Shown here piece by piece: positions 25,567-28,564 of a stretch of 64,000 nucleotides of DNA. The translations under genes and the position numbers were made by a program. The stretch lies in the IMG/VR virus record IMGVR_UViG_3300029319_000003, positions 120,188 to 184,187 of that record. One strand, written 5' to 3'. The first letter of the stretch is position 1. Each line of letters starts with the position of its first letter. The notes below the pieces were generated by a model. It made no database searches, had not been told where the DNA came from, and was given only the letters and a program-made list of their open reading frames with translations. The stretch is from a virus.

Positions 25567-25642
25567 TGGAGCCACTGATAGGACTTGAACCTACAACCTA
25601 CTGATTACAAATCAGTTACTCTACCAATTGAGTTACAGTGGC
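25567..25642 (-). tRNA. tRNA-Thr(TGT)
   Basis: Read on the minus strand: acceptor GCCACTG pairs with CAGTGGC, discriminator T, encoded CCA. Anticodon loop TTTGTAA gives TGT (reads ACA). T arm GTTCAAG is intact. The gene lies directly after the plus-strand protease stop. Confidence 0.93.
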
Positions 25643-26770: not shown

Positions 26771-26868
26771 TGGCTGGAGGGGGAGGATTCGAACCTCCAA
26801 GGTGCGCTTTCACGAACTCACCACCGTCGAGACAGGACGGCGCGTCTGCCAAATTTCGCCACCCCCCA
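26771..26868 (-). tRNA. Unusual class-II tRNA with anticodon GTC (Leu-like body, Asp anticodon)
   Basis: 98 bases. Acceptor TGGGGGG pairs with CCCTCCA, discriminator G, CCA encoded. The D arm (TGGCGAAATTTGGCAGACGC) is Leu-like. Anticodon stem CCGTC/GACGG encloses loop CTGTCTC: U33 is present, anticodon GTC, C38 present, but position 37 is T. A ~25-base variable arm (GGTG...CACC) follows and the T arm is normal. GTC is the Asp anticodon, yet bacterial tRNA-Asp has a short variable loop. G73, GUC and C38 are Asp identity elements in bacteria. The charged amino acid therefore cannot be assigned; a degenerate gene is an alternative. Confidence 0.7.
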
Positions 26869-27454: not shown

Positions 27455-27549
27455 TGGTAGGGCGAGTGGGATTCGAACCCACGATCTTGCGCTTATCAGA
27501 CGCTAAACCGGATATAAGCCGGTTGCCTTAACCGCTTGGCTATCGCCCC
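27455..27549 (-). tRNA. Unusual class-II tRNA with anticodon TAT
   Basis: 95 bases with encoded CCA. Acceptor GGGGCGA pairs with TCGCCCT (one G-T), discriminator A. D arm GCC...GGC, anticodon stem ACCGG/CCGGT with loop CTTATAT, anticodon TAT (reads ATA, Ile). A 24-base variable arm with stem GCGT/GCGC is inserted, then T arm GTTCGAA. Ile tRNAs have short variable loops, and most bacteria read AUA with a lysidine-modified CAU tRNA, so both body and anticodon are atypical. Charging identity is unknown (Leu, Ser or Tyr enzymes recognise long arms). Confidence 0.75.
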
Positions 27550-27824: not shown

Positions 27825-28159
27825 TGGTGGAGGCGGCGGGAATCGAACCCGCGTCCAAAATAAGTCCAATATAAGTCGTTCACAAGTTTAGTCAGTTTCT
27901 ATCACCCACTGACAAAGATAGACGGTTGTAATCTAATGCTTACCGTCCTGTTGCATTAGATGGTTTGATTTTTACAACTTGTCTGTTGTTTTGCTCAAAT
28001 TGGATAGAAGGTTTTGAGCGACCTCCCGACTAAGCAGCGAGTGCTACAGCGTCGAAGTGTGTGTTGTTATTTGCAACTATTGTGTTTGAACGATTAAGGT
28101 TGTATCTCACCTACTTGCACTTTTTCTCTTTCTTACCCTGTCGAATCCGTATCGCCCCC
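27825..28159 (-). ncRNA. ssrA: tmRNA (transfer-messenger RNA)
   Basis: Minus strand, 335 bases, one-piece form. The 5' end GGGGGCGATACGGATTCGAC and the 3' end with T arm GGGTTCGATTCCCGC and CCA are the classical tmRNA halves. The acceptor GGGGGCG/CGCCTCC contains the G3-U70 pair required for alanine charging. The tag reading frame (28074-28030) begins after ATAGTT and encodes ANNNTHFDAVALAA followed by TAG, so the tag ends in the ALAA protease signal like host tags. Trans-translation would rescue stalled ribosomes and mark the product for ClpXP. SmpB must come from the host. The 143-residue gene upstream ends inside its 5' end. Confidence 0.93.
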
Positions 28160-28564
28160 TTTGAATCTTTTACTAATATAGCCTCTCTTGGAGCCTTTGT
28201 CAAGTTCTTTTTCAGAAAAATATTCTTCAATCTTAAATTTTTCTTGAAGTTTGTAGAAGTGGCTGGGAGTGAGTCCTAAGAATCTCATCGCCTCGCCTTT
28301 GGTTCTAGTTGCTGAGAAAGTATATTTCAAGACAGCATCTTGCACAATGTCTTTTAAAGAATGCCATAGCGGTAGTCCATACAAAGCACTGCCTGCCGAC
28401 TTCGAAGCCAACTCCAGTTTTAGACCGATCACTTCCTCCAGTGTCAGACTGTTTAACATGATTTCGAATTGATAGTTCGAACGCTTTTCTTTCCTCAGTT
28501 TACGAATAAGTGAGTACTCAGCGTTAACCCCTTTATGAATTCTTCTTTTCTTATTCCAAGGCAT
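28133..28564 (-). CDS. Fis-type helix-turn-helix DNA-binding protein
   Basis: 143 residues. The C-terminal third contains the Fis/NtrC-type HTH (LKYTFSATRTKGEAMRFLGLTPSHFYKLQEKF), preceded by a helical dimerisation-like region (IMLNSLTLEEVIGLKLELA). Its stop (TAA at 28133) lies within the first 30 bases of the tmRNA, so mRNA and tmRNA overlap. The start overlaps the Rho-N-like gene by 14 bases. Probably a transcription regulator of the phage or of host genes. Confidence 0.8.
   Translation of the reverse strand: MPWNKKRRIHKGVNAEYSLIRKLRKEKRSNYQFEIMLNSLTLEEVIGLKLELASKSAGSALYGLPLWHSLKDIVQDAVLKYTFSATRTKGEAMRFLGLTPSHFYKLQEKFKIEEYFSEKELDKGSKRGYISKRFKGGDTDSTG

What the first reader, a model, noticed from the sequence alone, without database searches (positions are those of the whole stretch)
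27455..27549. Second class-II tRNA with anticodon TAT
Another tRNA in the same island has a 24-base variable arm and anticodon UAU, reading the rare ATA codon. Ile tRNAs have short variable loops and most bacteria use lysidine-modified CAU for AUA. One such oddity could be a degenerate gene, but two in the same island suggest a shared reason: codon-specific rewiring, decoys for tRNA-cleaving defences (PrrC/PARIS types), or a misread. The nematode nev-tRNA-Ile(UAU) is a striking parallel.
Basis: partly seen in the sequence, partly recalled or inferred. Interest (0 to 1): 0.75.

Follow-up and report, generated by a model that had tools for sequence, protein, structure and literature searches.

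The report
Isoleucine tRNA with two anticodon arms
This phage gene makes a tRNA with two complete anticodon arms, one reading the rare codon AUA and one carrying the ordinary isoleucine anticodon; the same molecule appears in other phages from metagenomes and in Actinomyces bacteria, where it stands in for the enzyme-and-tRNA pair that nearly all bacteria need to read AUA.

Summary
The tRNA is real (95 nt, CCA encoded), but it is not class II. The 24-nt "variable arm" is a second, canonical isoleucine anticodon arm (GCGU-CUGAUAA-GCGC, anticodon GAU) followed by an ordinary short class-I variable loop (AGAUC). The molecule has five arms: acceptor, D, UAU arm, GAU arm, T. I call it a double-arm (DA) tRNA.

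The same architecture occurs in seven other distinct phage sequences from viral metagenomes and in Actinomyces chromosomes (37 of 200 genomes of the family). All five helices covary. Both loops are conserved (CUUAUAY and CUGAUAA), even in searches that left both anticodons free.

In Actinomyces the DA-tRNA replaces the normal AUA system. TilS is over its cut-off in 0 of 37 DA+ genomes against 155 of 163 DA- genomes, and tRNA-Ile2(CAU) is missing. The UAU arm is the only AUA reader found.

Best reading: the UAU arm decodes AUA, while the GAU arm keeps the anticodon-loop identity set for isoleucyl-tRNA synthetase and serves charging; the UAU arm has lost A38 of that set. Architecture and TilS replacement are shown; the charging/decoding split is inferred. 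No report of such a tRNA was found in the open-access library.

The parts
27455..27549 (-). double-arm tRNA-Ile gene (95 nt, CCA encoded)
27543..27549 (-). acceptor stem 5' strand GGGGCGA (G1-U72 wobble, 7 pairs)
   Evidence: pairs with 27459-27465; all 7 pairs change on both sides across relatives
27525..27540 (-). D arm GCCA-AGCGGUUA-AGGC (3 pairs; A13/A22 matched by A46)
   Evidence: alignment A1
27507..27523 (-). first anticodon arm ACCGG-CUUAUAU-CCGGU; anticodon UAU at 27514-27516; joined to the D stem by A26 as in a normal tRNA
   Evidence: 100% paired and two-sided changes in relatives; loop CUUAUAY in every member held
27504..27506 (-). linker UUA between the two anticodon arms (2-4 nt in relatives)
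27489..27503 (-). second anticodon arm GCGU-CUGAUAA-GCGC; anticodon GAU at 27495-27497
   Evidence: 98.3% paired and two-sided changes in relatives; loop CUGAUAA in every member held; 43-nt match at 91% to Ile(gat) of Streptomyces phage Blueeyedbeauty from this arm through the T arm
27483..27488 (-). A43 plus class-I variable loop AGAUC
   Evidence: AGRUC in A1, A46 going with A13/A22 and G46 with C13-G22
27466..27482 (-). T arm GUGGG-UUCGAAU-CCCAC
27455..27465 (-). acceptor 3' strand UCGCCCU, discriminator A73, encoded CCA
27825..28159 (-). tmRNA at the upstream end of the tRNA island (context; indicates a bacterial host)
   Evidence: same tmRNA-tRNAs-PhoH order in L110 and L136

Best explanation
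A tRNA-Ile with two complete anticodon arms in tandem. The UAU arm, stacked under the D arm like a normal anticodon arm, reads AUA without lysidine. The GAU arm, inserted between that arm and the class-I variable loop, keeps the full anticodon-loop set that isoleucyl-tRNA synthetase reads (G34 A35 U36 A37 A38) and is the arm the enzyme grips. The two arms would trade places in the tRNA core: GAU in place while being charged, UAU in place on the ribosome. Shown here: the five-arm architecture, its conservation and covariation, both Ile loops, and replacement of TilS plus tRNA-Ile2(CAU) in Actinomyces. Inferred: that the UAU arm decodes AUA (strong inference). Inferred, not shown: that the GAU arm is what gets it charged, and the arm exchange.
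For: Second hairpin has a canonical Ile(GAU) loop and the class-I variable loop follows it. All five helices covary. Searches that left both anticodons free returned as double-arm tRNAs only UAU+GAU ones (one search read; structure-only scan of held loci, 32 distinct sequences). 37 of 200 Actinomycetaceae genomes carry it; TilS over cut-off in 0 of these 37 against 155 of 163 others (Fisher p 8e-33, but one genus, so probably one event). Complete genome G226: 50 tRNAs, two CAU tRNAs (initiator and elongator Met), one ordinary Ile(GAU), one DA-tRNA, no Ile2; comparison genome G060 has the third CAU tRNA. Of the DA+ genomes 30 are listed in full, each with only the two Met CAU arms; 13 of 14 DA- genomes examined keep an Ile2-type CAU arm. 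Because Actinomyces also has an ordinary Ile(GAU) tRNA, conservation of the GAU loop is not explained by a need to read AUC/AUU. The UAU loop has Y38 in every DA-tRNA, while single-arm UAU tRNAs of related phages have A38 (L113, L140, L144): the arm that would decode has dropped a base that E. coli IleRS reads and the other arm keeps it (identity set from my own knowledge of the E. coli work; anticodon, A73 and t6A37 as determinants in PMC9976931).
Against: No biochemistry. Actinomyces IleRS is of the type without the C-terminal zinc finger, so E. coli identity rules may not carry over and this enzyme might accept UAU directly. The fold of the Actinomyces sequence alone prefers another structure (L222), although the alignment supports the five-arm form. 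The two loops are complementary over 4 nt (UUAU/AUAA), which could contribute to their conservation.
Confidence: 0.5

Rival explanations
1. Both arms decode: one molecule reads all three isoleucine codons, AUA through UAU and AUU/AUC through GAU, by exchanging arms in the core.
For: Both loops are complete decoding loops with U33 and A37; the DA phages held carry no separate Ile(GAU) tRNA.
Against: Actinomyces keeps an ordinary Ile(GAU) gene beside the DA-tRNA, so GAU decoding by the second arm is not needed there, yet its loop is invariant.
Confidence: 0.2
2. UAU arm decodes and is charged as such by an adapted IleRS; the second hairpin is a class-II-like structural arm, its loop held fixed by pairing with the UAU loop (UUAU with AUAA) or by another binding protein.
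For: IleRS enzymes that accept UAU exist, as in Mycoplasma mobile (PMC4013482); related phages carry ordinary single-arm Ile(UAU) tRNAs; the loops are complementary over 4 nt.
Against: Pairing needs only A35-A38 of the second loop, but C32, U33 and G34 are invariant too; a class-II arm would not need a class-I variable loop after it; the loop is exactly the Ile(GAU) loop.
Confidence: 0.17
3. One arm is cut out after transcription (an intron-like hairpin), giving an ordinary 76-nt tRNA-Ile with UAU or GAU, or both in turn.
For: Removing either hairpin leaves a perfectly normal class-I tRNA.
Against: No group I intron or archaeal splice motif was recognised; no known bacterial system removes 19-nt hairpins at this place; the linker varies (2-4 nt) and both loops are kept as anticodon loops.
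Confidence: 0.08
4. One reading: a class-II tRNA that puts Leu or Ser at AUA, or a decoy against tRNA-cleaving defences.
For: Long extra segment and UAU anticodon; nev-tRNA-Ile(UAU) of nematodes is leucylated in vitro (PMC4300185).
Against: Extra segment is an Ile(GAU) anticodon arm; Actinomyces has it as its apparent sole AUA reader next to core genes; three of the four AUA positions in two phage proteins align mainly with I or V in relatives.
Confidence: 0.03

Closest known systems
Mycoplasma mobile tRNA-Ile2(UAU) (Taniguchi et al. 2013; cited in PMC4013482 and PMC11938285)
   Same: Reads AUA with UAU in a genome without tilS; no lysidine.
   Different: Described as an ordinary tRNA with one anticodon arm, charged by an IleRS adapted to UAU (that detail from my own knowledge). 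Here a second, GAU, anticodon arm is present.
Lactobacillus plantarum tRNA-Ile(UAU) (Tomikawa 2018, Uesugi 2022; titles seen in PMC9976931)
   Same: UAU tRNA-Ile in bacteria.
   Different: According to its title it is redundant with a CAU tRNA-Ile; no second anticodon arm known to me.
Bacterial tRNA-Ile2(CAU) with TilS
   Same: Job: reading AUA as isoleucine.
   Different: Needs lysidine at C34 made by TilS; both the tRNA and the enzyme are missing where the DA-tRNA is found in Actinomyces.
allo-tRNA with UAU anticodon and proposed five-stem junction (Mukai et al. 2017, as reviewed in PMC7609411)
   Same: UAU anticodon and a proposed fifth arm.
   Different: Extra loop lies between acceptor and D arm; 8/4 or 9/3 acceptor/T lengths; Ser identity; here 7/5, A73, and the fifth arm is an Ile anticodon arm.
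Nematode nev-tRNA-Ile(UAU) (PMC4300185)
   Same: UAU anticodon and a long extra segment.
   Different: Class-II variable arm and leucylation in vitro; here the segment is an anticodon arm plus a class-I variable loop.

Membership tests
tRNA (functional gene) | acceptor, D, anticodon and T arms with conserved tRNA positions and CCA | tested here: met
   T8, A14, G15, G18, T54, T55, C56 and A58 equivalents invariant or nearly so
class II tRNA | long variable arm in place of the class-I variable loop | tested here: not met
   class-I loop AGRUC is kept next to the T arm; the extra segment before it is a 4-bp, 7-nt-loop Ile(GAU) anticodon arm
tRNA-Ile | Ile anticodon, A37, A73 | tested here: met
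   UAU and GAU loops; A73 invariant
tRNA-Ile | charged with isoleucine by IleRS | not testable with these tools
   needs a charging assay
TilS-independent AUA reader (M. mobile type) | present where tilS and tRNA-Ile2(CAU) are absent | tested here: met
   Actinomyces; phage host unknown
TilS-independent AUA reader (M. mobile type) | single anticodon arm UAU | tested here: not met
   two anticodon arms
allo-tRNA | 8/4 or 9/3 acceptor/T lengths and Ser identity | tested here: not met
   7/5; A73
nev-tRNA | class-II variable arm with Leu identity | tested here: not met
   no class-II arm; charging itself not testable here
tRNA gene with intron | excised sequence | not testable with these tools
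   needs RNA sequencing

The most novel reading that the evidence does not exclude
A naturally occurring tRNA that splits the two jobs of the anticodon between two arms: a GAU arm that the synthetase reads and a UAU arm that the ribosome reads, with the arms exchanging places in the core. This freed a bacterial genus from TilS and tRNA-Ile2, and phages carry it too.
Probability: 0.45. Interest if true: 0.95.

Novelty: new variant of a known kind. Interest (0 to 1): 0.88.

Why it matters
A tRNA normally has one anticodon, read both by its synthetase and by the ribosome. That coupling is why AUA is hard to read: the tRNA must look like isoleucine to the enzyme and must not read AUG. Most bacteria solve it with an essential modification enzyme, TilS. 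A second anticodon arm would be another solution by RNA architecture alone, and one that can be tested directly by charging and rescue assays. It would also offer a template for building tRNAs whose charging and decoding parts can be changed separately. The find suggests gene exchange between phages and Actinomyces, since a phage copy (L194) is 86-87% identical to several Actinomyces genes, and a plausible route for losing an enzyme that is essential in most bacteria.

Tried and rejected
Exact search for the window's own sequence with a free insert: no match in viral contigs; exact 3' half: none. Direct relatives through a neighbouring structural protein: one locus without tRNAs near it. Cultured phages: blastn with the window tRNA hit only parts of ordinary tRNAs, and three DA-tRNAs gave no match at 1e-8. 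About two thirds of the 26 hits of the first pattern scan were ordinary Ile(GAU) tRNAs preceded by a chance TTATA; they were sorted out by reading the sequences. Most new hits of the free-anticodon scan were ordinary or chance hits too; every genuine double-arm hit was UAU+GAU. Phylum-wide scan outside Actinomyces: 0 of 395 other Actinomycetota genomes. A planned test of the IleRS residue that lets M. mobile accept UAU (E. coli W905) was dropped because Actinomyces IleRS lacks that C-terminal zinc finger. The 10 weak TilS matches in DA+ genomes (about 25 bits where printed, cut-off 93.6, first third of the model) are not TilS by the curated cut-off. Considered and rejected: class-II tRNA, misassembly (independent metagenomes and cultured isolates agree), pseudogene (all stems intact, compensatory changes), defence decoy.

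Full report
What is there. The window is the last 64 kb of a 184,187-base viral record of a T4-like tailed phage: terminase, portal, PhoH and ribonucleotide reductase families are found. Its tRNA island runs from a tmRNA (27825-28159) down to tRNA-Thr at 25567, all on the minus strand. ARAGORN and Rfam both find a tRNA at 27455-27549, and both place UAU in the anticodon loop and treat 20-24 further bases as an insert in the variable region. Reading the insert gives UUA-GCGU-CUGAUAA-GCGC-A-AGAUC. GCGU-CUGAUAA-GCGC is a hairpin with the canonical loop of tRNA-Ile(GAU), and AGAUC is an ordinary class-I variable loop. The 3' half (nt 48-90) matches the class-I Ile(gat) of Streptomyces phage Blueeyedbeauty at 91%. 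So the gene encodes two anticodon arms in tandem, UAU then GAU, sharing one acceptor, D and T arm. The UAU arm keeps the normal junction on its 5' side (D stem, A26), and the GAU arm keeps the normal junction on its 3' side (class-I variable loop). Deleting either arm leaves a normal tRNA.

Is it more than chance? A scan of 2.9 million viral contigs for UAU followed by GAU before a T arm gave nine contigs with true double-arm tRNAs, seven distinct sequences. A second scan left both anticodons free (CUNNNA and CUNNNAA): its only genuine double-arm hits were the same nine contigs, all UAU+GAU. A structure-only scan of everything fetched, with both loops unconstrained, returned 32 distinct sequences, all CUUAUAY + CUGAUAA; that set is limited to loci already brought in by the earlier searches. 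In an alignment of 15 distinct sequences 99.2% of pair cells are standard, 14 of 25 pairs show changes on both sides (no shuffle of 500 reached this), and every helix, both anticodon arms included, has two-sided changes. RNAalifold without guidance predicts exactly these 25 pairs. Single-sequence folding gives the five-arm form for five of the six sequences folded, the window's included (there the D arm is drawn shifted and the GAU loop is partly paired), but not for the Actinomyces sequence L222.

Where else it occurs. The pattern scan of 84,980 bacterial and archaeal species found it only in Actinomyces (15 genomes). A covariance model built from the alignment found it in 37 of 200 genomes of the family, with 103-116 bits, far above ordinary tRNAs, which score about 40-54 with this model, and in no other genome among 396 of the phylum. 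The gene sits among core genes in Actinomyces (aminotransferase I/II in L233 and L235, NIF3 in L235, CT398 domain in L223). A phage copy (L194) is 81-87% identical to the Actinomyces copies in the alignment and 74% to the window's, so phage and bacterial genes look homologous.

What it replaces. Nearly all bacteria read AUA with tRNA-Ile2(CAU), whose C34 becomes lysidine through TilS. In the same 200 genomes TilS passes the curated cut-off in 0 of 37 carriers and in 155 of 163 non-carriers (Fisher p 8e-33). The carriers appear to be one genus (the 15 with titles are all Actinomyces), so this is probably one evolutionary event and the p-value overstates independence. In the complete carrier genome G226 all 50 tRNAs were read: the CAU tRNAs are initiator and elongator Met only, there is one ordinary Ile(GAU) and one double-arm tRNA, and no Ile2; non-carrier G060 has the third CAU tRNA. 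A pattern for CAU arms gives the same picture: the 30 carriers listed in full each show only the two Met arms, and all 37 have the same total, while 13 of 14 non-carriers, including ones where the TilS model missed, keep an Ile2-type CAU arm; the exception, G185, looks fragmentary. So in Actinomyces the double-arm tRNA is the only AUA reader found. AUA is rare there but makes up 9% of isoleucine codons in the phage (5.0 per 1000). In two phage proteins, three of four AUA positions align mainly with I or V in about 80 relatives and the fourth with aromatic residues: consistent with isoleucine, on a small sample.

How it most likely works. That the UAU arm decodes AUA follows from the genome evidence (strong inference). 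Why keep a GAU arm? Actinomyces has an ordinary Ile(GAU) tRNA, so AUC/AUU decoding is not the need, yet all seven bases of the GAU loop are invariant while its stem changes by compensation. The loop holds what E. coli IleRS is known to read (G34, A35, U36, A37, A38: my own knowledge; PMC9976931 for anticodon, A73 and t6A37). The UAU loop lacks G34 and has a pyrimidine at 38 in every double-arm tRNA, whereas single-arm UAU tRNAs of related phages have A38. This fits a division of labour: GAU arm for charging, UAU arm for decoding, the two taking turns under the D arm. This last step is inference. Actinomyces IleRS is not of the E. coli zinc-finger type, so only a charging assay can decide.

Known or new. 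UAU readers without TilS are known (M. mobile; tRNADB-CE mentions TAT anticodons in 19 species without describing a second arm). UAU allo-tRNAs with a possible fifth arm between acceptor and D arm are known and thought not to serve translation in E. coli. Searches for two, double, dual, tandem or extra anticodon arms found nothing similar. The library holds open-access papers only, so an unseen report is possible.

The coordinates, the UAU anticodon and the 24-nt segment are right. The class-II label, the nev-tRNA parallel, the decoy idea and the shared cause with the neighbouring 'Asp' tRNA are not supported.

Noticed in passing
window 26771-26868 (-): Sibling tRNA called Asp(gtc): 7/5 acceptor/T, G73, long variable arm capped by GAAA, and a U at position 37 (loop CUGUCUC), which is abnormal for a decoding tRNA. 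A 92% identical relative (L174:885-981, record G006) has CUGUUUC and an anticodon stem changed on both sides, so it is a conserved RNA; no anticodon-like second arm. Only one relative was found in viral contigs.
   Followed up: partly
window 28030-28232 (-): Rfam's permuted-tmRNA family (RF04321) passes its gathering score over part of the ordinary one-piece tmRNA and beyond its 5' end; probably a cross-match, not checked.
   Followed up: no
L113:184-259, L140:6375-6450, L144:7610-7685: Related phages carry ordinary single-arm Ile(UAU) tRNAs with loop CUUAUAA; others carry CAU tRNAs that may be Ile2. The same phage group seems to use at least two, perhaps three, kinds of AUA reader.
   Followed up: partly
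L199:380-476: The most divergent double-arm tRNA: the GAU stem is down to 3 clear pairs with a wider loop, and the 3' end reads AUCA instead of ACCA; possibly decaying.
   Followed up: no
L223:4735-7929: Replication-relaxation and type IV coupling-protein-like genes lie downstream of the double-arm tRNA in one Actinomyces, suggesting an element integrated at this tRNA gene.
   Followed up: no
window 27489-27523 (-): The two anticodon loops are complementary over four bases (UUAU with AUAA), so a kissing contact that hides the UAU anticodon is possible. Any pair of UAU and GAU isoleucine loops would show this.
   Followed up: no
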